Positions 20-25,419 of a stretch of 29,487 nucleotides of DNA are shown here, in pieces; position 1 is the first letter of the stretch; each line of letters starts with the position of its first letter. Below the pieces are notes generated by a model, which was given only the letters and a program-made list of their open reading frames with translations, ran no database searches and was not told where the DNA came from. Source of the DNA: a virus; IMG/VR virus record IMGVR_UViG_3300005264_000060, positions 1 to 29,487 of that record. One strand, written 5' to 3'. The translations under genes were made by a program, and so were the position numbers.

Positions 20-196
20 TTATTTCAAGTATTTTTTTATTATATTTCTTTTATAATTCCTTGTAAGTCTTTTTGATAATAATTTGACACTGAGAAATGA
101 TGTTGAAATAAAATTAAAATTTCTAATATCATCATCACTACCATACTTTTCAATTAAATTTTTTAACTTATTAATTTCTATAGAAGTTATAGACAT
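20..196 (-). CDS. Small basic protein of unknown function (58 aa)
   Basis: This 58-residue frame begins MSITSIEINKLKN and ends in the lysine-rich stretch RNIIKKYLK. Its ATG lies 10 bases inside the end of the upstream RNA ligase gene, so the two are probably translationally coupled; no separate promoter is visible. The protein is rich in Lys, Asn and Ile, has no transmembrane segment, signal peptide or cysteine motif, and I do not recognise its family. Downstream of its stop only 19 bases remain in the window. Support is the intact frame, the phage-typical overlap and the absence of any competing frame. Function unknown. Confidence 0.6.
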   Translation of the reverse strand: MSITSIEINKLKNLIEKYGSDDDIRNFNFISTSFLSVKLLSKRLTRNYKRNIIKKYLK

Positions 197-1110
197 TTAT
201 TCAACCATTTTACTACTATTTTACTAAAATTAAAAATATCTTTATCTTGTTTTTTAGATAAATTAATAGTTTTATATTCAGGATAATCTTTAATAAAATC
301 TTTTCTTACATCAATAAAATATTCTTTAATATAATTTCCAATTTGTTTTGGAAATTCAATAAGTCCCATTTTACTAAATAAATTATTAAGTCTTGCTTCA
401 GTAACATAATTAAGTACCAATGGTCTCCATGATTCAACTATTGGGTCAGTTTTTTTGGGTATTTTATTTCTTTTTTCAGAATTTTCTTTGAACTTTTTAG
501 ATTTCTTTTTTAAAATAAATCTATCATGCCCAAAAAATAATTCTTTTGAACTTGGTCTACCAATAATACCTTCTGCAATATTACCTGATTTATTAAGAAT
601 TTTTGAAATAAGAGTTTCTACTTCAAAATTTATAAATTCTTCAAAAGTTACATTTCTCTTAATAACAGGTACCACAGGTAAATTAAAATCTATCATAAGA
701 TTTTCAAAAAACTCAAAATCTTTATATACTGATCCTATTTTAATATCAAAAAAATTAATTAGTTTTTCATTTTGATATTTAACACCTTTATTAACCCCTT
801 TACCAAACAATTCACCATATAATCTTACTGGATAATTTGCGTTTTTTGTAAAATTTATTATATCATCAAGATTAAGTTTTTTAACGGCATCTTGCCAATT
901 ATAAAAATTTTCATCAGAACTAAGTATACGTTTCCTTGTACAAAATTCAACTGTACCGTCAATGTCAATAGCAATTTGAAAATTAGCACCATGAAGTTTT
1001 TCTAGAATAATAAAAGATATTTTATCCAAATCATCAAATTTTTTTTTAAATTTTTTAATAAATTTTTGTCTATAAGAATTTTCAATATCATAATATTTGT
1101 TAAATTCCAT
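187..1110 (-). CDS. rnlB: T4 Rnl2-like RNA ligase (double-strand nick-sealing type)
   Basis: ATP-dependent RNA ligase of the covalent nucleotidyltransferase superfamily, closest in motif layout to T4 RNA ligase 2, which seals nicks in duplex RNA through a lysyl-AMP intermediate. Motif I is EKLHGANF (residues 37-44, nucleophile Lys38), matching the EK-hG-N pattern of Rnl2. Motif III is YGELFGKG (98-105), motif IV EGIIGRP (180-186) and motif V LKKKS (200-204). The length, 307 aa, is slightly under that of T4 Rnl2 (about 334). The C-terminal third is the likely Rnl2-specific domain. It starts its own unit behind a TTGACA-type promoter and overlaps the next small ORF by 10 bases. It is the first of two RNA ligases in the window; the other is Rnl1-like, as in T4, which also has both. 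A kinetoplastid-type editing ligase relationship is the only realistic alternative. Confidence 0.9.
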   Translation of the reverse strand: MEFNKYYDIENSYRQKFIKKFKKKFDDLDKISFIILEKLHGANFQIAIDIDGTVEFCTRKRILSSDENFYNWQDAVKKLNLDDIINFTKNANYPVRLYGELFGKGVNKGVKYQNEKLINFFDIKIGSVYKDFEFFENLMIDFNLPVVPVIKRNVTFEEFINFEVETLISKILNKSGNIAEGIIGRPSSKELFFGHDRFILKKKSKKFKENSEKRNKIPKKTDPIVESWRPLVLNYVTEARLNNLFSKMGLIEFPKQIGNYIKEYFIDVRKDFIKDYPEYKTINLSKKQDKDIFNFSKIVVKWLNKCL

Positions 1111-9113: not shown

Positions 9114-9284
9114 TTATTTAAGTGATACACCTAAAATTCTTTTAACAATTTTTTTGTAAGATACCCAATCCCCATTATTTACTATTTTTTCAATTTCTTT
9201 AATTTCTTTAGCTGTTGCTTTTTGATATAGTTGAACCATTTCAAGAGCACCAATATTTCCTTTATATGCTGCTTCATCAATCAT
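9114..9284 (-). CDS. Small conserved phage protein (56 aa)
   Basis: A 56-codon gene lying between the 254-aa protein and the clamp gene. Its ATG is inside the end of the preceding frame (8-base overlap), with GGAG a short distance upstream. The product starts MIDEAAYKGNIGALEMVQLY and ends DWVSYKKIVKRILGVSLK; it is helical and charged. The final SYKKIVKRILGV block looks like a motif recurring in small phage proteins, but I know no function. The gene leaves only 14 bases before the clamp ATG, which explains the apparent gap. Confidence 0.75.
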   Translation of the reverse strand: MIDEAAYKGNIGALEMVQLYQKATAKEIKEIEKIVNNGDWVSYKKIVKRILGVSLK

Positions 9285-10041
9285 TTAGCATTTCTCCATC
9301 AACTAATCGTTTGAGATTATCAACATCAGCATTATCAATCAATTTTCTATACTGTTTCATCTGTTCATCTGTTGATTCATTCATAAATTTTGTTAATTGA
9401 TCAAATTTGATAATATTATCAAGACTATCACTATTCTCTTCATAATATTTTTTCCATCCACCTTTAACCAATGCATTCATTGCCCATTTACCCATATTAT
9501 TAGTAGGTCTTTTAACATGTTGAAAATCTTCTTTCAGAATAAAAGGTCTACCATTAACTTTTGTGGACATTTGACCATCTTTACCAAATATAGGATTACC
9601 AAATTTACGAATTTTCCCATAACCCGGAAACCCATCAGGACAAGTATTTGTACCTATTAAAATACCTTCTTTACCACCTTTTGGTATAAACAAAATACTA
9701 TCTTGTTCATATTCTGCACCCAACTTTTTAAGCGTCTTTTTAAGATTGCCTGTATCATTGATATCTACCACAAGAAAAACATCTTCACCTACTTGTTTTT
9801 CATTTTTTGATCCATAATTTTCTATATATGAACCTTTAACTTTTGTAATAGAAAACTTTTTAGATAGTAATGATGCAAGTAAAACCTTATTTCTGGCTTT
9901 GTTTTCACCTTTGGTATATGGTTGACCATCACCACATTCTCTTGCATCTCTAAATGCTGTAATTGTTCCAGAATCATGTTTTTGCATATGATTCCACACT
10001 TTTGATAATGAATTTTCATTTATATAATCTTTAAATCTCAT
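9277..10041 (-). CDS. Conserved phage protein, possibly DUF3293-related (254 aa)
   Basis: The N-terminus MRFKDYINENS is of the kind seen on many T4-type phage proteins. The core reads GTITAFRDARECGDG, NKARNKVLLASLL, VKGSYIENYG, GEDVFLVVDI, LGAEYEQDSILFIPKGG and ILIGTN (residues about 25-130). This TAF-N-L-GxYIE-G-QDSI pattern resembles the DUF3293 type of small alpha/beta protein, a tentative match made from memory. The remaining C-terminal 120 residues are not recognised. It is transcribed between gp62 and the 56-aa gene within the clamp operon. No function can be given. Confidence 0.7.
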   Translation of the reverse strand: MRFKDYINENSLSKVWNHMQKHDSGTITAFRDARECGDGQPYTKGENKARNKVLLASLLSKKFSITKVKGSYIENYGSKNEKQVGEDVFLVVDINDTGNLKKTLKKLGAEYEQDSILFIPKGGKEGILIGTNTCPDGFPGYGKIRKFGNPIFGKDGQMSTKVNGRPFILKEDFQHVKRPTNNMGKWAMNALVKGGWKKYYEENSDSLDNIIKFDQLTKFMNESTDEQMKQYRKLIDNADVDNLKRLVDGEMLND

Positions 10042-10412: not shown

Positions 10413-10737
10413 TTATATATTTGTATGGATGTAACTCTCTTTATGAAAACCAATGGTTTCTGTTATAGCAAAGATAAGATCAATACCATTCCCATGATAT
10501 GCTAATTTCTGAATCCAATCAAATGTCTTTAGGTGGATTACACCATACTCTCCCTTCCCACTTTTGATTTAAACCATTAACACTTTTAGTAAAATGGTTC
10601 TTTGCAGTACTCCATGGTCTAACATTTTCTTCTGGAGCACAAGGGTCTAAATCAAATTCACCAAGAGATTTAATAATATCTGGTGGAGTTAACCACTGTT
10701 CTTCATTATCTGTGTTTGTATTAAAATCATTTATCAT
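10413..10737 (-). pseudogene. Frameshifted and truncated Dam-type DNA N6-adenine methyltransferase
   Basis: The first frame (10519-10737, 72 aa) has the N-terminus of phage Dam-type methyltransferases: EQWLTPPDIIKSLG, FDLDPCAPEENVRP, and EGRVWCNPP, where NPP belongs to the catalytic NPPY/DPPY motif. It stops right there. The -1 shifted frame carries on with TFDWIQKLAYHGNGIDLIFA and ITETIGF, the expected continuation (family pattern W-x-KLA-HGNGI-LIFA-TET), and ends at a TAA at 10413-10415. So a one-base indel lies near 10520-10530, and the usual C-terminal 60-80 residues are gone. The catalytic tyrosine is lost too. The start overlaps the gp44 stop (ATGA). Programmed frameshifting is unlikely since the shifted product is also incomplete. 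Confidence 0.8.
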
Positions 10738-11669: not shown

Positions 11670-12755
11670 TTATTTAATAAAATTAAATAATAAATTAACT
11701 TTTTTATCTATTGATAAATTTTCAATAATATCTACTATGTTATTACCTTTTTTTAAACTAAATAGTATACCTGATATTGGTGTATCTTTAACTATCATAG
11801 CAAATTCTTTTTGATCTTTAATGTGTTTAGTTTTATTCCATAAATTATTAATTGAATCAATAAACTTATTATATGCATTAGTGTATTTGTTCATAATATC
11901 AGTATATTCAGAAAAATAACACAAAAATTCTTCTTCTTCTTGTTTAAATGCCAATTCAACAAATCCCTTTACCGAATTTTCACCTTCACCTTTCAATCTA
12001 TGAATTGCTACATAAGATGCATTTTTAATTTTAATTCTTTTTTGTGTATATTTGTCAAAACAAACAACTCCTTCATCCATAGCATCTCTACCTTCAACAA
12101 ATTTTATAATATCTTTTGGATTGTTTAAATTATAACTCGGGGCCAGACCATCAGTTTGCATATTAAAATCTGTTTTAGTATTAATACAATCATAATCAAC
12201 ATATAATCCAGTCAAATTATTTCTAATAGCTAATAAAGTTGTAGTTGTTTCATAATATCTTGTCACTATTCTATTTTCTGGTGAAGTAATTTCAAATATA
12301 TAAGTATGATGTTTTGAACAAAATTCAAAACCATGTTCTAAATCAGTACCAATAGCGTCAAGAAATAAATTGTAATAAGTTTTATCCATAGGTGTTTTAC
12401 CTTCTGCAAAAGCCGTTCCTCTTGTAGCAGCACACCATTTATTACCATCATGATACACATTAATTAAAGATCCATCTAATTTATTAAAAACAATACAATT
12501 ATTCCAGTTAAAACTATCTTTATCATCTCCTTCACCATAATTAAAAAATCTATCAAAACTTCTACATAATACTTTATAATCAGGCAATGATAAAATAAGT
12601 CCTCTACATTCAAGTACAATAGGATGAAATTTTGGTTTAGAGTCTATACGATAATTAAACACTATTCTATCATCATAAACTTTTGTATGAATACCAAAAG
12701 ATTTACTAATATCATCAATTGTTCCTGTCTGTAAAAATTTCTGTGTTTCTAACAT
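11670..12755 (-). CDS. rnlA: T4 Rnl1-like RNA ligase (tRNA repair type)
   Basis: A 361-aa ATP-dependent RNA ligase of the Rnl1 family (T4 Rnl1 374 aa), which joins 3'-OH and 5'-phosphate ends in single-stranded RNA and in T4 repairs tRNA cut by the PrrC anticodon nuclease. Motif I is FNKLDGSL (residues 90-97), nucleophile Lys92, the KxDGS form of Rnl1. ECRGLI (49-54) is the upstream conserved arginine motif; FEITSPENRIVTRY is motif IIIa-like, and EGVVCFD plus KRIKIKN are motifs IV and V. The C-terminal helical region is tRNA-specific in T4. It has its own TTGACA/TATATT promoter and sits 15 bases ahead of gp44. Confidence 0.92.
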   Translation of the reverse strand: MLETQKFLQTGTIDDISKSFGIHTKVYDDRIVFNYRIDSKPKFHPIVLECRGLILSLPDYKVLCRSFDRFFNYGEGDDKDSFNWNNCIVFNKLDGSLINVYHDGNKWCAATRGTAFAEGKTPMDKTYYNLFLDAIGTDLEHGFEFCSKHHTYIFEITSPENRIVTRYYETTTTLLAIRNNLTGLYVDYDCINTKTDFNMQTDGLAPSYNLNNPKDIIKFVEGRDAMDEGVVCFDKYTQKRIKIKNASYVAIHRLKGEGENSVKGFVELAFKQEEEEFLCYFSEYTDIMNKYTNAYNKFIDSINNLWNKTKHIKDQKEFAMIVKDTPISGILFSLKKGNNIVDIIENLSIDKKVNLLFNFIK

Positions 12756-13825: not shown

Positions 13826-13857
13826 AAGGTATATTATGTATTTACATAATATACCTT
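13826..13857. promoter_or_regulatory. 32-bp perfect palindrome: operator and/or leftward terminator
   Basis: Two perfect 15-base arms (13826-13840 and 13843-13857) separated by TT. The centre is within about 3 bases of the start predicted from the dehydratase promoter, an operator-like position. Read leftward, the hairpin is followed by six U residues (complement of 13822-13827), so it could also end transcripts coming from the DUF2828 gene. Confidence 0.75.
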
Positions 13858-13875: not shown

Positions 13876-15315
13876 TCATTTTGGTATTACTAAATCTTTG
13901 TTATATTTTTTAAGTGTTTCCATCATAATTGCCTTTGGAGAAAAATCATCACATGACAATATACTTTTTAATATTGATGGTGAAAATCCAGATACTAAAC
14001 CAATATTTTTTGAATCAACAGTATCAGGTGAACCACCATACCCAACAAGATTCCAATAAACAATTTTTGGTCTTTTAAATCCAGCATCATCCCATTTTTT
14101 TAATGATTGTTCAACCTCTGTTAATACAGAATTTGAATTACTTTTACATCCAATAGAAAATTGCATATCTGAACAAATCAATAACATTGATGGCATATCA
14201 TTATTTGTAACATTAAACATTTTACCTGTTAATAATATTAAATCTAATGCTTTATCAATTCTTGTTGATCCACAAGCACCATTAAAAAAATTATTTCCAT
14301 CCCAATTATCAGTCGGAAATGTATCAGCAAAATTAGTGTTTGACCAATCAGTAAATATACTTTCGGATTCAAACTGGATAAACTTTTTATAAAATGGGTT
14401 ATTTTTTGATAATTTACCTGAACAATATAATGCTAAAGATGTTGATACATCATATGCTGTAGTACTATTAGATATAGATGATAACATTGATCCTGATGAA
14501 TCACAAAGAACCATAATATTATTATCAGTCATATAATTAGGAAGATTATCAAATTGAGCATTTGCTATATCTTTGTCACCATTAATAGCTGTCTTTTTAC
14601 AATCATGTGGAAACAACACATCAGCATTAATTGTAACTTTATTTGATTTTAAATCATTTTTATATTTTATCATTCCAATTTCATCATGATTAATAAATGC
14701 ACTATTATATCTTGACATTGCAACGGATGGTACATTTTTATATTTAATATCTGTCCATCTATTATCACACATTTTAGATTCAACAATATGGTCTTTTCTA
14801 ATACCTGAAAGAAGTCTTCTAAAATCACCCATATTTTTAACAAAACCAGTTTTTTTCAAATCAACATACAATGGAATATCAGTTCTTTTAGCCCATTTAG
14901 CTGCCAAAACATCTTTTTCAATTAATGCTTCATTCCAAACATAAACCGCATCTTTATGACAATCAGAATTAAATAATTCTCTCATATCATCCCAACGACC
15001 ATATTTTGGTATTAATTTTATATTTTGTCTAATCCAATTAACACCATTAGGTTGTTTAGATAACCATTTTAAACACTTTCTAAATCCACTTCTATTACCG
15101 GCACCACCACGACAATCTCTTACCCACAACAAAAGTTTAAAAGAAATTTCTTTATCAACTATCCAAGCACGTTGAAATAAATTTAAAATATCTTCAATAT
15201 TATTATAAAAATAACTTGATTGTGTTGTATTATATAAAGAACCTGCCTTTGAAAAAAATTCTACACAATGATCTAATGAATGTTCATATTGAACTGATTT
15301 TTCATTAGTTTTCAT
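13876..15315 (-). CDS. DUF2828/TROVE-like RNA-binding ring protein with vWA domain
   Basis: A 479-aa protein with the architecture of the DUF2828 family, which resembles Ro60/TROVE: an N-terminal helical-repeat ring and a C-terminal von Willebrand A domain. N-terminal signatures are LLLWVRDCRGGAGNRSGFRK (residues 61-80), IPKYGRWDD (102-110), AKWAKR (139-144), FRRLLSGIRK (165-174) and VPSVAMSRY (195-203). The vWA domain has an intact metal-ion site DSSGS (272-276; D-x-S-x-S) and later ICSDMQF. Ro60 proteins bind Y RNAs and misfolded RNAs and act in RNA quality control with nucleases. Here the gene follows a structured 340-bp noncoding region. The start at 15315 has GGGG upstream rather than AAGGAG. 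The exact target is unknown. Confidence 0.8.
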   Translation of the reverse strand: MKTNEKSVQYEHSLDHCVEFFSKAGSLYNTTQSSYFYNNIEDILNLFQRAWIVDKEISFKLLLWVRDCRGGAGNRSGFRKCLKWLSKQPNGVNWIRQNIKLIPKYGRWDDMRELFNSDCHKDAVYVWNEALIEKDVLAAKWAKRTDIPLYVDLKKTGFVKNMGDFRRLLSGIRKDHIVESKMCDNRWTDIKYKNVPSVAMSRYNSAFINHDEIGMIKYKNDLKSNKVTINADVLFPHDCKKTAINGDKDIANAQFDNLPNYMTDNNIMVLCDSSGSMLSSISNSTTAYDVSTSLALYCSGKLSKNNPFYKKFIQFESESIFTDWSNTNFADTFPTDNWDGNNFFNGACGSTRIDKALDLILLTGKMFNVTNNDMPSMLLICSDMQFSIGCKSNSNSVLTEVEQSLKKWDDAGFKRPKIVYWNLVGYGGSPDTVDSKNIGLVSGFSPSILKSILSCDDFSPKAIMMETLKKYNKDLVIPK

Positions 15316-15344
15316 ATGTTATACCCCTTTTTTTAATTTACAGA

Positions 15345-15384
15345 TTGAAAAATTGAAAAATTGAAAAATTGAAAAATTGAAAAA
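15345..15384. repeat. Five tandem copies of the 8-mer TTGAAAAA
   Basis: Exact copies start at 15345, 15353, 15361, 15369 and 15377. They lie 30-70 bases upstream of the DUF2828 gene start and read TTTTTCAA on its coding strand. Phase 8 is not helical-repeat phased; slippage or iteron-like protein sites are both possible. Confidence 0.95.
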
Positions 15385-15587
15385 TTTTATTTATTTATTT
15401 TTTATTATTTGCTGAAATCAATCTTTTTTTAAAAGGTAAGTAAGTTAAAATTAATAATTTTCAAAAATCATTATAGTGATATATTAAACAGATTGATATT
15501 TTATGATTTTTTAAATTTCTTTTAATTTTAACTTTATTCATTCATCTAAGTAGGTAATTGCAGTAATCAATCTTTTAATCACTAAAT

Positions 15588-15647
15588 TTATAAGTAGTAA
15601 TATAACATATTACTACTTATAAGTAAAGTAGTTTTTTAAAAACTACT
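15588..15647. other. Two adjacent perfect hairpins with alternative pairing
   Basis: Hairpin A has 15-base arms 15588-15602 and 15608-15622 with a 5-base loop. Hairpin B has 10-base arms 15627-15636 and 15638-15647. ACTACTT (15612-15618) in A can instead pair with AAGTAGT (15626-15632), which includes most of B's left arm, so the structures are mutually exclusive, as in attenuators. B lies 8 bases beyond the HU stop codon. No long U-run follows on the leftward strand. Confidence 0.8.
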
Positions 15648-15655
15648 AAAAATTT

Positions 15656-15934
15656 TTATTCTGCATCTACTGCATCTTTAAGTCGTTTAGATGGTTTAAA
15701 CGCAACCACTTTTTTTGCAGGAACATTAATTGGATCACCTGTCTTTGGATTTCTTGCTGTATAAGCTTTTCTTGGATTAATTTTAAATTTACCAAATCCA
15801 AAAAGTTCAACATTTTCACCTTTACTAAGAGTATCAACCATTATATTCAATACATTATCAAGTAGTTCAGTTGCCATTTTCTTAGTTGTATTATTTTGTT
15901 CTGCCAACGAATTTACCAATTCTTTTTTATTCAT
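15656..15934 (-). CDS. HU/IHF-family histone-like DNA-binding protein
   Basis: A 92-aa HU-type DNA-bending protein. The frame is open further upstream, but AAGGAG lies seven bases before the ATG at 15934 and the protein from there (MNKKELVNSLAEQNNTTKK) has the exact HU N-terminus, so the longer start is rejected. ENVELFGFGKF (residues 40-50) and ARNPKTGDPINVPAKKVVAF (60-79), the beta-arm with its intercalating proline, are classic. Full length for the family. It would bend or compact phage or host DNA as a dimer. It has its own TTGACT/TACAAT promoter and is followed by the structured noncoding region. Confidence 0.95.
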   Translation of the reverse strand: MNKKELVNSLAEQNNTTKKMATELLDNVLNIMVDTLSKGENVELFGFGKFKINPRKAYTARNPKTGDPINVPAKKVVAFKPSKRLKDAVDAE

Positions 15935-15974
15935 TTTCTTTCTCCTTAAAACATTAACATTATTTTTATTTTTA

Positions 15975-17024: not shown

Positions 17025-18050
17025 CTAATTATAATATCCTAAAATAATTTCTTTAATTACATTGTTATCTTTTTTATTAAAAATTTTAAGATTTTCATCA
17101 TTAAGTTTATTATCGATTTCAATAATACCATCATAAATAAGTTTTTCAACTTTTTTAAAAGTTAACTTACCAAGTTTAATATCAAGAATTTCATTTGCAT
17201 TATATAAAGGATATTGAATATAACCACTATTAATTAATTGTTTCATTTGAAACAATGATCTTACTGCATGTGATAATGCCTTCCAATCAATACCATTATT
17301 TTTTTCTGCCTCTTCCGCCCTTTTACCATATTTTAAATAATCAGTGTTAATTCTTTTAATAAATTCAAGAAGTTTAATATTACCCTGATGAACTTTACCA
17401 CATAAAACTAATGATTTAACTGGATCATGACCATTTTTACTAATTAATTTAGTAAAACAATAAGAAGAATCAAAACATTTATTAATAATTTCATCAATAA
17501 CATATGATAATTTAATTTGTTTGATATCCATTTGAAGATTTGAAGATAATCCTTTAACTATTTCAGGAATTATGTCATTAACCTTTTTTAAAACACCAAG
17601 TCTTGACCCTTTAATTCCATATTTTTTTGCTTGTCCAATTGCATAACCAATAAATGATTTACAATGTTTAATATTAAATAATTTATTATATTGGTTATGA
17701 ATTTGACTCATTTGAGAATCACTATATTTAATAATTTCTGGATAAGTAAAAGAAAATAACAAATCAAGTGCGTTAGTTTCACCTTTTGAAACCAATTTAA
17801 GAAAGTAATGAAGTGACCATAATTGAACATCAATATCATCTTTTGTATTTTTGTTATTATCCCCCGTAGAAAATGTAATACTTTTACTTACATTCTGAAG
17901 TAATAATTGATCTTTAGATGGTAAAAATATTCCTTTATAATCAGTATCAGAATTAGGTGTATTAGTACCATATAAATGACTACCAAATTTAACAAAATAT
18001 ATTAATCTCACACCATGTTCATCACAAATATTTTGAACTTCATTTAACAT
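17025..18050 (-). CDS. RlaP-type polymerase-beta nucleotidyltransferase (RNA repair associated)
   Basis: A 341-aa protein of the PF10127 group, named RlaP for RNA-ligase-associated polymerase-beta-like proteins. The catalytic signature is FGSHLYGTNTPNSDTDYKGIF: Gly23-Ser24 and the metal-binding pair Asp35/Asp37. A helical C-terminal domain follows, including KGETNALDLLFS and NNGIDWKALSHAVRSLFQM, regular features of the group. Family members are linked by genome context to RNA ligases and are thought to add or modify nucleotides at RNA ends. In this window two RNA ligases and an HD-kinase fusion make the same association. It is last in a five-gene leftward unit headed by the HPr-kinase-like gene. 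Confidence 0.85.
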   Translation of the reverse strand: MLNEVQNICDEHGVRLIYFVKFGSHLYGTNTPNSDTDYKGIFLPSKDQLLLQNVSKSITFSTGDNNKNTKDDIDVQLWSLHYFLKLVSKGETNALDLLFSFTYPEIIKYSDSQMSQIHNQYNKLFNIKHCKSFIGYAIGQAKKYGIKGSRLGVLKKVNDIIPEIVKGLSSNLQMDIKQIKLSYVIDEIINKCFDSSYCFTKLISKNGHDPVKSLVLCGKVHQGNIKLLEFIKRINTDYLKYGKRAEEAEKNNGIDWKALSHAVRSLFQMKQLINSGYIQYPLYNANEILDIKLGKLTFKKVEKLIYDGIIEIDNKLNDENLKIFNKKDNNVIKEIILGYYN

Positions 18051-20570: not shown

Positions 20571-20661
20571 TCCAGAGTACTCTAATTGGAAAGAGGTTGC
20601 GCTGTTAACGCAATGTATACCCTAATAGGTTATGGTGGTTCAAATCCACTCTCTGGAGCCA
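20571..20661 (+). tRNA. tRNA-Asn (GUU) with an unusual long variable arm
   Basis: Acceptor stem TCCAGAG pairs with CTCTGGA; D-arm CTCT-8-AGAG; anticodon arm TTGCG-CTGTTAA-CGCAA gives anticodon GUU (Asn); T-arm GGTGG-TTCAAAT-CCACT; discriminator G73; CCA is encoded. U1-A72 and G73 agree with bacterial tRNA-Asn. The variable region is 20 bases and can form ATACC/GGT(T)AT with one bulge, a class II arm normally found only in Leu, Ser and Tyr tRNAs. Confidence 0.88.
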
Positions 20662-20670
20662 AAATTATAA

Positions 20671-20757
20671 GCAGAAGTGGTGGAATTGGTTTACACAAAG
20701 GACTTAAAATCCTTCCCTCTTATGAGGTTGAGAGTTCAAATCTCTCCTTCTGTACCA
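20671..20757 (+). tRNA. tRNA-Leu (UAA)
   Basis: Acceptor GCAGAAG with CTTCTGT (G-U at 1-72); D-arm GTG...CAC; anticodon arm AAGGA-CTTAAAA-TCCTT, anticodon UAA reading UUA, the favoured leucine codon in this AT-rich genome; class II variable arm CCTC-TTAT-GAGG; T-arm GAGAG-TTCAAAT-CTCTC; A73; CCA encoded. Nine bases follow tRNA-Asn. The 152 bases after it show no tRNA or gene. Confidence 0.92.
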
Positions 20758-20909
20758 AAATTTTATTATCAAGAAGTGATAAATATTATTGATTATGTTA
20801 AACACTAAAATTTAATTATATCTTAAAAAATGTAATGTTTATGATTTAACAGTAAACTAACACTATTGATTTATTATGATGAACATAAATGGAAATACTA
20901 TAATTATAA

Positions 20910-20988
20910 AGGGGATTGGTGAAGTGGTTTAACACGCCAGGTTTTGATCCTGGTATTTTCGTAGGTTCGAATCCTACATCCCCTTCCA
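20910..20988 (+). tRNA. tRNA-Gln (UUG)
   Basis: Acceptor AGGGGAT/ATCCCCT; D-stem GTG/CAC; anticodon arm CCAGG-TTTTGAT-CCTGG, anticodon UUG (CAA); T-arm GTAGG-TTCGAAT-CCTAC; CCA encoded. The 1-72 pair is A-U and the discriminator is U, both unlike E. coli tRNA-Gln. A TATAAT (20899-20904) lies just before it without a clear -35. Confidence 0.88.
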
Positions 20989-20995
20989 ATAAAAT

Positions 20996-21844
20996 ATGAT
21001 ATTAAACACTCTTGATACAAAAACAAAAACTTTTTATCATGAAATTAATGACAATTTCAATTATAATACTATATCAGTAATTGACTATGAAAATAATATA
21101 CATGGTGATAAAAAGAAAATTAATAATTCTAAAACATATATTACAGATATGAGTATTATTGATGATGATAATTTTTTATTATGTTATTATCATAGATTAT
21201 TAAAAAAAATCATATGTAAAATAATTAATATAGATGGTGTTAATGTTAATTCTGGTCAAATGTGTATTATTGATGATAATACACATACAACTGTTATGTC
21301 TCTTATATCTATATCTTCTACTCGTGCCATATTAACATATAATGATACTTTAAATAATGTTGGTAAATCATTACTTTTAAATATAAGCAATGATTTTATT
21401 ACAATTATAGAAAAATATATATTCGCATATGAAAATATTCCAGAACTAGCATCTTTTAAACTTTCAGATACAGAATTTGTTTTATTTTATCAATTAAAAA
21501 ATAGTGGTATTGTTAGGCTTATTGAAATAAAAAACGATCAATTAGAATTAAAAGAAGAACAATTATTTTATAAAAATAGTGATTTATGGGGTCTTAGTAT
21601 TCAACGTATTCATGATTATTTCATTTTAGTATTTATTGATTCAACTCAAAGACTTATATTAAAAATTATTACAGCAAATAAAAAACTTTCTTTTTCATCA
21701 GGAAGAATATATAATCAACCAGTTATAGATGGTAAATTTGAATTGGTAACTATTGACAATGAATTTGCTATATGTTATTTTAATAATACAGCTCAAATTA
21801 TTTCAATAACTGATGGTAAAATGATAAAACCTGAAAATTTATAG
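20996..21844 (+). CDS. Beta-propeller-like repeat protein (282 aa)
   Basis: About five degenerate repeats of 45-50 residues can be seen, each with a DDDNFLLCYYH / SSTRAILTYND / SDTEFVLFYQL / HDYFILVFIDS / DNEFAICYFNN core strand, then a strand pair ending in hhxIxxD. This is the pattern of short WD/Kelch-like blades found in phage fibre-associated and surface proteins. No signal peptide or enzymatic motif. The ATG lies seven bases after the CCA of tRNA-Gln and has no Shine-Dalgarno sequence; internal ATG codons have none either. After tRNA 3'-end processing, the message could be nearly leaderless. Confidence 0.65.
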   Translation: MILNTLDTKTKTFYHEINDNFNYNTISVIDYENNIHGDKKKINNSKTYITDMSIIDDDNFLLCYYHRLLKKIICKIINIDGVNVNSGQMCIIDDNTHTTVMSLISISSTRAILTYNDTLNNVGKSLLLNISNDFITIIEKYIFAYENIPELASFKLSDTEFVLFYQLKNSGIVRLIEIKNDQLELKEEQLFYKNSDLWGLSIQRIHDYFILVFIDSTQRLILKIITANKKLSFSSGRIYNQPVIDGKFELVTIDNEFAICYFNNTAQIISITDGKMIKPENL

Positions 21845-22190: not shown

Positions 22191-23255
22191 ATGTTAAATA
22201 TCAAAATAGATATATTAAAGGCATTTCTTGATAATACAGAATTATTTGAATCTATGAATAGTTGTAATCATTATGAAAATAGTAATAATTTTAATCCTTA
22301 TCATCTTGAAGGTAGTCTTTGGACACATACCATGTTAGTATATAATGCTGCAAATTCAGAAGATTATATAGAATTAATAATGGCACTTTGTCATGATATT
22401 GGAAAAGTAATTACAAGAAAAGTTAATGATAATGGTAAAGTATCTTTTTATGGACATGCTGATGCATCAATTCAACCTACAATAGATTTTGTTAATTATT
22501 TGTATACAAAAAATATTATTAACAGAAAAGAATTTGATAATTTTTTAAAATTTGGTCTTCCTGCAATGGCTAATCATATGATATATTATAAAAATAGACA
22601 TAAACTTAATTATTTTAGTAATAATAATACCATCATAAAAAATTATTATAAAAAAATGAATTATATTGATAGTATTGGTTCTATTTGTGAAGATGATGAT
22701 GATGAAGAAAATGTTATAAAAGATTTTGTTCTTAAACCATTTGATAAAGACCAACCAACAATAACAATTTGGACCGGATTACCTGGATCTGGTAAAGATT
22801 ATCTTGCCAAAAAAACTGGGGACCCTATTGTATCATGGGATGATATAAGAGTAGAAATATACAAAAATTATGTATCTGAAAATTATATTAATATGATGAC
22901 GAATAAGGAAATTTATGAAAATGCATTTAAATATTGTAAAGAAAAAAATATTAATATTAATAAACTTATGAAAAGAAAAATTAATGATATTGTTAAAACT
23001 GAAAAAAATATCAATATTTGTAATACTTCATTAACAAGAAAATCTAGACGTAATATCATTAATACAATAAGTACAAAATATAATTATGTGATCAAACAAG
23101 TTTTTGTTCCTACTAAATTAATATATGAAAGAAATACTATAAGAGATAGTAAAACTGTACCAATTAATGTTATTAATAATATGATGAAAAATATGACAAT
23201 AGCAACTTATTTTGAAAAAAACATTAATAATATTGAATACATTTTAAATATTTAA
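22191..23255 (+). CDS. HD-domain phosphohydrolase fused to polynucleotide-kinase-like domain
   Basis: Two domains in 354 aa. The N-terminal HD domain (about 1-165) has LEGSLWTHTMLVYN (His46), LCHDIGK (His68-Asp69), FYGHAD (His89) and MANHM (His129), matching metal-dependent HD phosphohydrolases such as those fused to CCA-adding enzymes. The C-terminal domain (about 188-354) has Walker A GLPGSGKD (196-203), then VSWDDIR (214-220) and a helical lid, as in T4 polynucleotide kinase and relatives. Expected activity: 5'-OH phosphorylation by the kinase, with removal of 3' or 2',3'-cyclic phosphate by HD, that is, end healing before RNA ligation. An acidic linker EDDDDEENV separates the domains. Activities are inferred from motifs. 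Confidence 0.85.
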   Translation: MLNIKIDILKAFLDNTELFESMNSCNHYENSNNFNPYHLEGSLWTHTMLVYNAANSEDYIELIMALCHDIGKVITRKVNDNGKVSFYGHADASIQPTIDFVNYLYTKNIINRKEFDNFLKFGLPAMANHMIYYKNRHKLNYFSNNNTIIKNYYKKMNYIDSIGSICEDDDDEENVIKDFVLKPFDKDQPTITIWTGLPGSGKDYLAKKTGDPIVSWDDIRVEIYKNYVSENYINMMTNKEIYENAFKYCKEKNININKLMKRKINDIVKTEKNINICNTSLTRKSRRNIINTISTKYNYVIKQVFVPTKLIYERNTIRDSKTVPINVINNMMKNMTIATYFEKNINNIEYILNI

Positions 23256-25054: not shown

Positions 25055-25419
25055 TTCTTTCAATAATAGTATCTGTAGAAAGATCAATTAATTTACCTGA
25101 TCTAGCATCACCATAAATTAATTGATCTTTTTTATTTAAAAATCCTATTAACGCATGTCTCATACCATTAGAAAACATAACTGAAACATCCATTGCAAGA
25201 ACATTACCATATCCTTTTTTACTTAACCATCCTCTAAGAATACGATTTCCATCATCACAATCTCTTGAATATATCTTTTAAATCTAACCAGTTTATATGT
25301 TTACCTTTTATTTTAAGACCCCAAAACCCCATAGTATGTTCCTTATTTTTATTGATTTTTATAATAGGTCTAACTTTAATTAATGATTGAAAAAATTGAT
25401 AATTTATTTTTTGTATCAT
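25044..25419 (-). pseudogene. Frameshifted transglutaminase-like (Cys-His-Asp) protein
   Basis: Two frames join: from an ATG at 25419 (or one at 25329 with AAGGA upstream) the product reads GFWGLKIKGKHINWLDLKD then stops after FKRL; the adjacent frame continues SRDCDDGNRILRGWL, VLAMDVSVMFSNGMRHALIG and QLIYGDARSGK to TAG at 25044-25046. Cys, His and Asp in DCDDGN, RHALIG and YGDAR are spaced as in transglutaminase-like cysteine peptidases. The total length, 376, is one base over a multiple of three, fitting a single insertion near 25258-25280. The start shares one base with the previous stop. An assembly error is possible. Confidence 0.75.
25079..25133 (+). terminator. Long-stem rho-independent-like terminator, rightward
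   Basis: Perfect 16-base arms (25079-25094 and 25115-25130) with a 20-base loop, followed by T-run 25128-25133, starting 24 bases after the transglycosylase stop. It lies within the 3' part of the convergent broken gene. The long loop makes it less typical. Confidence 0.65.

What the first reader, a model, noticed from the sequence alone, without database searches (positions are those of the whole stretch)
13876..15655. Ro60-like protein beside a structured noncoding region: possible phage Y-RNA-type partner
Ro/TROVE genes in bacteria often have a Y RNA gene next to them. Here the only long noncoding stretch of the window (340 bp) lies directly upstream of a DUF2828 ring protein and folds into two perfect hairpins plus repeats. 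The classical Y-RNA binding consensus is not visible, so if an RNA is made it would be a new class.
Basis: partly seen in the sequence, partly recalled or inferred. Interest (0 to 1): 0.72.

Follow-up and report, generated by a model that had tools for sequence, protein, structure and literature searches.

The report
Phage small RNAs beside Ro60-like gene
Just upstream of a gene for a Ro60-like ring protein, this phage carries two tandem copies of a small stem-loop RNA belonging to a family found here beside the same gene in many unrelated phages, and built like the "Class I" RNAs previously reported only from social amoebae.

Summary
The protein (13876-15315, -) is DUF2828; its predicted fold best matches Ro60/TROVE structures. 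The two perfect hairpins look like terminator structures behind an HU gene, and no conservation was found.

The rest of the 340-bp gap holds two tandem minus-strand copies (15488-15574, 15340-15425) of an RNA element also found beside DUF2828 genes of many other phages: 5'-AAG, 6-7-bp terminal stem, U(A/U)CAGCAA, variable AU-rich loop, complementary strand, CUG(U). Evidence: compensatory stem changes (28 stem sequences in 41 elements); all 118 covariance-model hits in 90 DUF2828 loci (two batches, E up to 5 and up to 1) on the DUF2828 strand; a pattern search blind to DUF2828 found 62 viral contigs, 38 with DUF2828 (base rate about 1.3% of phage records), and none in bacterial or archaeal genomes.

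The architecture closely matches Dictyostelium Class I RNA (Rfam RF01414), published as unique to social amoebae. Some relatives instead carry tRNA-like RNAs with sub-threshold matches to bacterial Y RNA (YrlA).

Most likely function (inferred): Y-RNA-type partners of the phage Ro protein in tRNA/RNA repair. Binding, transcription in this phage, and homology to Class I RNA are unproven.

The parts
13876..15315 (-). DUF2828 / Ro60-like protein, 479 aa; vWA MIDAS residues D272, S274, S276 (DSSGS), T351 and D383 invariant in 18 phage homologues
15488..15574 (-). RNA element copy 1 (87 nt): AAG, stem GATTGAT (15566-15572), motif TACTGCAA (15558-15565), about 60-nt loop, stem ATCAATC (15491-15497), CTGT (15488-15491)
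   Evidence: model R1 15.6 bits (rank 3), model R2 18.7 bits, E 0.089 (rank 3); R1 and R2 were built without the window
15340..15425 (-). RNA element copy 2 (86 nt): AAG, stem GATTGA (15418-15423), motif TTCAGCAA (15409-15416), loop, stem TCAATC (15343-15348), CTGT (15340-15343); ends about 24 nt before the DUF2828 start codon
   Evidence: model R1 18.0 bits (rank 1), model R2 22.4 bits, E 0.015 (rank 1)
15344..15386 (.). Tandem (ATTGAAAA) x 5.4; on the - strand (TTTTTCAA)n that supplies the 3' strand of copy 2 and alternative partners for it
15588..15622 (.). Perfect 16-bp hairpin between the HU gene and copy 1; read as a transcript-end or terminator-like structure (inference)
15627..15647 (.). 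Perfect 9-bp hairpin just behind the HU gene; terminator-like (inference)
15586..15592 (-). TATAAAT, 12 nt upstream of copy 1; similar to the T4 late promoter box (weak, the motif is common in this AT-rich DNA)
15656..15937 (-). HU-type DNA-binding protein, upstream neighbour (the mechanical ORF extends to 15994 from a TTG)
13826..13857 (-). 14-bp hairpin with T-run behind the DUF2828 gene (terminator)
187..1110 (-). Rnl2-type RNA ligase (PF09414, T4_Rnl2_C): RNA-repair context
11670..12755 (-). Rnl1-type RNA ligase (PF09511, PHROG 562): RNA-repair context
17025..18050 (-). RlaP-type nucleotidyltransferase (PF10127, 'RNA repair pathway'): RNA-repair context
20571..20988 (+). tRNA-Asn, tRNA-Leu, tRNA-Gln

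Best explanation
The gap encodes two tandem copies of a small, terminally closed stem-loop RNA (AAG - 6-7-bp stem - U(A/U)C(A/U)GCAA - variable loop - stem - CUGU), and the adjacent DUF2828 gene encodes its Ro60-fold partner. SHOWN by sequence: the family, its covarying stem, its same-strand linkage to DUF2828 across many phages, two copies in this window, and the Ro60-like predicted fold. INFERRED: the RNAs are transcribed during infection; the terminal stem plus UNCNGCAA motif is the binding site for the DUF2828 ring, as the lower stem of Y RNA is for Ro60; the variable loop gives each copy a different target or gating function; the RNP acts in tRNA/RNA surveillance beside the phage's tRNAs, two RNA ligases and RlaP, helping infection survive host nucleases that cleave tRNAs.
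For: (1) Unbiased 8-mer strand test in noncoding DNA of 95 DUF2828 loci: besides tRNA T-arm words the top word is TACAGCAA, 40 segments on the DUF2828 strand against 1 on the other; CAGCAA 157 against 33. (2) Of 109 non-redundant motif instances, 47 have a 6-bp complementary partner followed by UG, against a mean of 7 and maximum of 15 when partners are permuted 200 times; 28 different 6-nt stem sequences among 41 elements. On a 31-sequence alignment 89.6% of stem cells pair against 57.6% shuffled, and sliding the partner by one column drops this to 47-53%. (3) Model R1 (31 phage elements, window left out): all 44 hits in 21 loci (E up to 5) and all 74 in 69 loci (E up to 1) lie on the DUF2828 strand, including loci not used to build it (L007 Listeria A511, L014 Enterococcus, L016 Mycobacterium phage). 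Over whole records it hits 14 of 15 DUF2828 records with E under 0.002, and 0 of 5 control phages without DUF2828 at E under 0.01 (one at 0.025). (4) Reverse test: an RNA pattern alone (5' strand, motif and 3' strand, 23 defined positions) found 62 IMG/VR contigs; 38 encode DUF2828 (27 in the fetched stretch, all same strand; 11 elsewhere in the contig), against 665 of 50,697 phage records overall; 0 matches in 257 Gb of bacterial/archaeal genomes. (5) Window: the element rule finds exactly two elements in 29.5 kb on both strands, both in this gap and on the DUF2828 strand; 1 of 20,000 shuffles of the gap has one and none has two. In isolation both copies fold with the terminal stem as minimum-energy structure. 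(6) Fold: best 12 PDB matches all Ro60/TROVE. (7) RNA-repair genes in the window.
Against: No transcript or binding data for this phage. The covariance-model scores in the window are weak (22.4 and 18.7 bits; E 0.015 and 0.089) and one hit inside a gene scores between them. Copies are long (86-87 nt; training-set median 65 including 11 flanking nt). Copy 1 has CUGCAA instead of CAGCAA; that variant was added to the search rule after it was seen in the window (it also occurs in other loci), so the shuffle test is not fully a priori for copy 1. Nearest relatives of the protein (44-50% identity) do not have the same gap, and in two of them (L019, L024) the elements lie more than 10 kb from DUF2828. 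About 40% of DUF2828 loci show no hit within 4 kb. The Ro60 match is by predicted fold (TM about 0.5), with no significant sequence similarity to Ro60 in the PDB.
Confidence: 0.7

Rival explanations
1. Cis-acting leader: the elements are binding sites in the DUF2828 mRNA leader through which the protein represses its own translation; no free small RNA acts in trans.
For: Copy 2 ends about 24 nt before the start codon, and in many phages copies lie directly upstream of DUF2828 (L007, L011, L012, L014, L023).
Against: In many other phages the elements lie only downstream of DUF2828 or among tRNAs (L006, L013, L015, L018; L031, L045, L085), or kilobases away (L002 record, about 6 kb; G049, G051), and come in arrays of up to about ten (L136). 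A leader operator need not recur behind the gene.
Confidence: 0.15
2. Phage-encoded Y RNA proper (YrlA family): the gap encodes a classical bacterial Y RNA with a tRNA-like domain.
For: Relatives carry tRNA-like RNAs with sub-threshold YrlA matches beside DUF2828 (L013 5661-5776, 40.1 bits; MiniLon record 42224-42295, 37.7 bits).
Against: The window gap has no YrlA or other credible Rfam match, no tRNA, no T-arm word.
Confidence: 0.04
3. DNA-level function: AT-rich origin or regulator-binding iterons (repeated AGATTGAT, ATTGAAAA octamers, HU gene next door), with the RNA resemblance accidental.
For: 16% G+C, tandem octamers and repeated AGATTGAT.
Against: The repeats fit the RNA family's paired architecture, including the fixed motif after the 5' strand and CTGT after the 3' strand, in both copies and on the DUF2828 strand; 1 in 20,000 gap shuffles gives even one copy. 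In other phages the two strands of the stem covary.
Confidence: 0.05
4. Only transcription terminators and low-complexity DNA; no RNA gene in the gap.
For: Perfect hairpins behind the HU gene, a terminator behind DUF2828; AT-rich DNA easily gives weak matches.
Against: Explains the hairpins but not the two elements downstream of them.
Confidence: 0.06

Closest known systems
Dictyostelium Class I RNA (Rfam RF01414; PMC7919456)
   Same: AAG start, CUGU end with its C paired to the first G, 6-bp terminal stem with many compensatory changes, conserved motif directly after the 5' strand (phage N-U-(A/U)-C-A-G-C-A-A against consensus CCUUACAGCAA), variable AU-rich loop, about 60 nt, clusters in intergenic DNA. 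RF01414 gives sub-threshold matches that mark the DUF2828-side elements in phages (best E 7.3e-6 per record).
   Different: Published as unique to dictyostelids. No phage match reaches the curated cut-off (best 33.4 against 41.5 bits). Motif position 3, a near-invariant T in amoebae, is variable in phages (T in 36 of 75), while position 4 is nearly always T (69 of 75); both window copies have T at 3 and 4. Window copies are longer (86-87 nt). The published partner is the RRM protein Rnp1A, not a Ro protein. Homology or convergence is undecided.
Bacterial Y RNA / YrlA (Rfam RF02553) with Rsr
   Same: Small RNA whose base-paired ends form the expected Ro-binding stem, encoded next to a Ro60-fold protein and RNA-repair genes.
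   Different: No tRNA-like module and no YrlA match in the window; binding not tested.
Listeria phage CKA15 putative Rsr/Y RNA (PMC12282133)
   Same: DUF2828 protein CKA15_055 was proposed there as Rsr with nearby abundant noncoding RNAs as Y RNAs. Three copies of the element lie directly upstream of CKA15_055 (L164 2453-2724).
   Different: The very abundant CKA15_059-061 RNAs discussed there do not match the model; the elements found here are a different region, and the passages of the paper read here do not report their expression.
TROVE/Ro60 proteins in phages (PMC7824862; PDB 9l5y and 9kop)
   Same: Phage Ro-fold proteins beside RNA ligases and RlaP are already known.
   Different: The DUF2828 branch and its RNA element were not described in the papers read.

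Membership tests
Ro60/TROVE fold protein | Ring of helical repeats plus vWA domain, fold match to Ro60 | tested here: met
   Predicted model (pLDDT 77, pTM 0.80): 12 best PDB matches all Ro60/TROVE, E 1.9e-6 to 6.7e-4, TM 0.38-0.57
Ro60/TROVE fold protein | Sequence membership in TROVE / Ro60 families | tested here: not met
   Window protein matches DUF2828 and DUF7788, no TROVE; one of 18 homologues weakly matches vWA_Ro60, E 0.0014; PDB profile search gives Ro60 at E 0.043 only
Ro60/TROVE fold protein | Binds Y-type RNA on the outer ring | not testable with these tools
   Needs binding assay
Phage DUF2828-linked RNA element (defined here) | Terminal stem, motif after the 5' strand, UG after the 3' strand, on the DUF2828 strand | tested here: met
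   Both window copies; copy 1 with CUGCAA variant
Phage DUF2828-linked RNA element (defined here) | Score with a model built without the window | tested here: inconclusive
   22.4 and 18.7 bits, E 0.015 and 0.089, ranks 1 and 3 in the window
Dictyostelium Class I RNA | AAG start and CUGU end, C paired with first G | tested here: met
   Both window copies. In 75 phage elements G 71, C 71, U 68, G 74, but final U only 30
Dictyostelium Class I RNA | 6-bp stem kept by compensatory changes | tested here: met
   (phage family)
Dictyostelium Class I RNA | Motif positions T3, C6, C9, A10, A11 | tested here: met
   All five in both window copies; in phages generally T3 is variable
Dictyostelium Class I RNA | Length 42-65 nt | tested here: not met
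   Window copies 86-87 nt; phage median about 55-60 without flanks
Dictyostelium Class I RNA | Rfam cut-off of 41.5 bits | tested here: not met
   Best phage match 33.4 bits; no match in the window gap
YrlA bacterial Y RNA | tRNA-like module / Rfam RF02553 match | tested here: not met

The most novel reading that the evidence does not exclude
Dictyostelium Class I RNAs and the phage DUF2828-linked RNAs are one ancient family of Ro-binding RNAs: Class I RNA would be a type of Y RNA, its missing core partner would be a Ro60/DUF2828-type protein, and the class would have spread between phages and amoebae.
Probability: 0.3. Interest if true: 0.93.

Novelty: new variant of a known kind. Interest (0 to 1): 0.82.

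Why it matters
It gives phage Ro60-like (DUF2828) proteins, known in hundreds of phages but without an assigned RNA, a specific and testable RNA partner found by covariation and by two-way genomic linkage. It also places RNAs with the architecture of Dictyostelium Class I RNA, published as unique to social amoebae and linked to the origin of their multicellularity, in bacterial viruses beside a Ro-fold protein. That makes the open question of what Class I RNAs bind and do directly testable in simple phage systems.

Tried and rejected
Rfam on the window: only tRNAs; S4-Fusobacteriales, snoZ13 and mir-251 matches far below cut-off. DNA similarity of the gap to phages: only short AT-rich scraps, none with a DUF2828 neighbour shown. 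Single-sequence searches for relatives of the DUF2828 protein (nothing), the HU protein (two distant loci) and the epimerase (nothing). Exact search for the 16-bp hairpin in viral contigs: none. Search for the window-specific repeat: one contig, without DUF2828 in the fetched stretch. YrlA model on the window: none. sigma-70 scan: no clear excess over shuffles. The T4-late-like TATAAAT upstream of copy 1 is suggestive only, since most copies of the motif lie inside genes. Dictyostelium genomes and proteins are not in the collections, so presence of DUF2828 or TROVE there could not be tested; a paper search gave nothing. I considered the CKA15_059-061 abundant transcripts as direct proof of expression and rejected this, because the model does not match that region.

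Full report
CHECK OF THE OBSERVATION. The window is a 29,487-base virus record, about 18-28% G+C along its length, with T4-like replication genes. The gene at 13876-15315 (-) is a 479-aa DUF2828 protein, with homologues in 665 of 50,697 phage records, at about 25-33% identity among those listed. The gap 15316-15655 is real, noncoding and more structured than shuffles, but it is not the longest noncoding stretch. The two perfect hairpins are real and non-random. They stand directly behind the HU gene as the other long hairpin of the window stands behind the DUF2828 gene, and the longer one has no match in viral contigs. I read them as transcript-end structures; this is inference.

FROM THE PROTEIN TO THE RNA. 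I fetched DUF2828 loci from 17 diverse phages and 80 IMG/VR contigs. Several phages carry tRNA clusters next to DUF2828, and three have about 110-nt tRNA-like RNAs with an insert. A shared word followed by a T-arm led to a strand-biased 8-mer count over noncoding DNA of 95 loci, for which no motif was chosen in advance. Besides tRNA words, TACAGCAA leads: 40 segments on the DUF2828 strand, 1 on the other. Listing all instances showed a closed stem: about six bases before the motif pair with bases 20-100 nt downstream that are followed by UG. Of 109 non-redundant instances 47 have such a 6-bp partner, against a mean of 7 and maximum of 15 when partners are permuted. 28 different 6-nt stem sequences occur among 41 elements. 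Pair counts on 31 sequences: 89.6% of cells paired, covariation 0.867 against 0.233 shuffled and about 0.21 when slid by one. Those 31 were chosen for having a partner, so the permutation test is the fair one.

THE FAMILY IS LINKED TO DUF2828 BOTH WAYS. A covariance model from 31 phage elements (R1, window excluded) hits 21 loci 44 times (E up to 5) and 69 further IMG/VR loci 74 times (E up to 1), always on the DUF2828 strand; by my count 54 of these 90 loci have a hit with E under about 0.05. Over whole records, 14 of 15 DUF2828 records have hits, most within about 1 kb of the gene, while T4, SPO1, phiKZ, K and P-SSM2, which lack DUF2828, have none at E under 0.01. In the reverse direction the pattern GGATAG-WUWCAGCAA-N22-52-CUAUCCUG found 62 viral contigs. 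27 have DUF2828 in the fetched stretch, all on the same strand, and 11 more elsewhere in the contig; most of the rest are fragments. The same pattern has no match in 257 Gb of bacterial and archaeal genomes.

THE WINDOW. The element rule finds exactly two elements in the window, both in the gap on the DUF2828 strand: copy 1 15488-15574 and copy 2 15340-15425. One of 20,000 shuffles of the gap has one element and none has two. They share the stem GATTGA(T)/(A)TCAATC and both start AAG and end CTGT. The 22-nt direct repeat in the gap is their 5' half. R1 and R2 (R2: 75 elements, still without the window) place them first and third in the window, with 22.4 and 18.7 bits in R2. The scores are modest because the loops are long and AT-rich, and one chance match inside a gene lies between them. 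Copy 1 carries CUGCAA, a variant seen in a few other loci and admitted to the rule after inspection.

WHAT THE PROTEIN IS. An AlphaFold model from the window and four IMG/VR homologues (pLDDT 77, pTM 0.80) matches only Ro60/TROVE structures significantly: 9kop, 1yvr, 2i91, the Ro60 of Thermus phage phiLo (9l5y), Deinococcus Rsr (2nvo) and others. Sequence search does not detect this reliably. The MIDAS residues are invariant. So 'Ro60-like' is supported by fold, not by family membership. PMC7824862 already described TROVE proteins with RNA ligases and RlaP in jumbo phages, and PMC12282133 proposed Rsr plus Y RNAs for a Listeria phage and found the protein in purified particles.

COMPARISON WITH KNOWN RNAS. 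Scans of the phage elements returned, unexpectedly, Rfam RF01414, Dictyostelium Class I RNA; over 24 records its best places are the DUF2828-side elements in many of them, down to E 7.3e-6, though none over the cut-off, and matches at E up to 1 also occur in unrelated control genomes. The published Class I features, AAG start, CUGU end, 6-bp compensated stem, motif with T3, C6, C9, A10 and A11, about 60 nt, clustered intergenic genes, are all present in both window copies except length. In phages at large T3 is variable and U4 nearly fixed. The paper reports the class as absent outside dictyostelids. I therefore file the phage RNAs as working like a Class I/Y-type RNA and closely resembling Class I, without claiming homology. 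Separately, some relatives have RNAs with sub-threshold YrlA matches beside DUF2828, and in L013 the stem-loop elements and YrlA-like RNAs lie side by side.

MECHANISM AND LIMITS. Most likely the RNAs and the DUF2828 ring form a small RNP with the terminal stem and motif as binding site, acting with the phage's tRNAs, Rnl1- and Rnl2-type ligases and RlaP in tracking or repairing damaged RNA during infection. The family, its linkage, its copies here and the fold are shown. Transcription, binding and function are inferred. A leader-type autoregulatory site remains the main rival for copy 2, which ends about 24 nt before the start codon.

Noticed in passing
L012 3618-3732; L009 5803-5912; L011 1458-1574; L013 5661-5776 and 5811-5913; L016 5490-5614: RNAs of about 100-125 nt near DUF2828 genes, tRNA-like or with sub-threshold matches to bacterial Y RNA (YrlA); some carry a TTA(A)C(A/T)GCAA word before the T-arm. 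Probably tRNA-mimicking Y RNAs coexisting with the short elements.
   Followed up: partly
L164 1220-1820 (Listeria phage cka15, CKA15_059-061): Region whose two top ORFs are reported to take about 67% of phage transcripts at 40 min (PMC12282133); does not match the RNA model built here, so it is a separate, unexplained abundant noncoding RNA.
   Followed up: partly
L136, L112, L107, L131, L156, L142: Arrays of up to about ten copies of the element along several kb of one contig, all on one strand.
   Followed up: no
window 187-1110, 11670-12755, 17025-18050, 22191-23255: RNA-repair set: Rnl2-type ligase, Rnl1-type ligase, RlaP nucleotidyltransferase, and a protein with an HD-like start (by eye) and a P-loop kinase-like half (AAA_33, E 2.9e-5).
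   Followed up: partly
window 10519-10737: 72-aa ORF that looks like the start of a phage-type DNA adenine methylase (LTPPDI...FDLDPCA) and then stops; possibly truncated. By eye only.
   Followed up: no
window 9277-10041: Protein with a match to S-adenosylmethionine lyase (PF23780, E 1e-11), a known type of phage counter-defence enzyme.
   Followed up: no
window 20758-20909 and 25055-25418: Other noncoding stretches (between tRNA-Leu and tRNA-Gln; and 364 bp between convergent genes) without a family match.
   Followed up: no
window 21658-21744 (+): Chance-level match of the RNA model inside a gene (TACAGCAA with a poor stem); shows the noise level of the model in this AT-rich DNA.
   Followed up: yes
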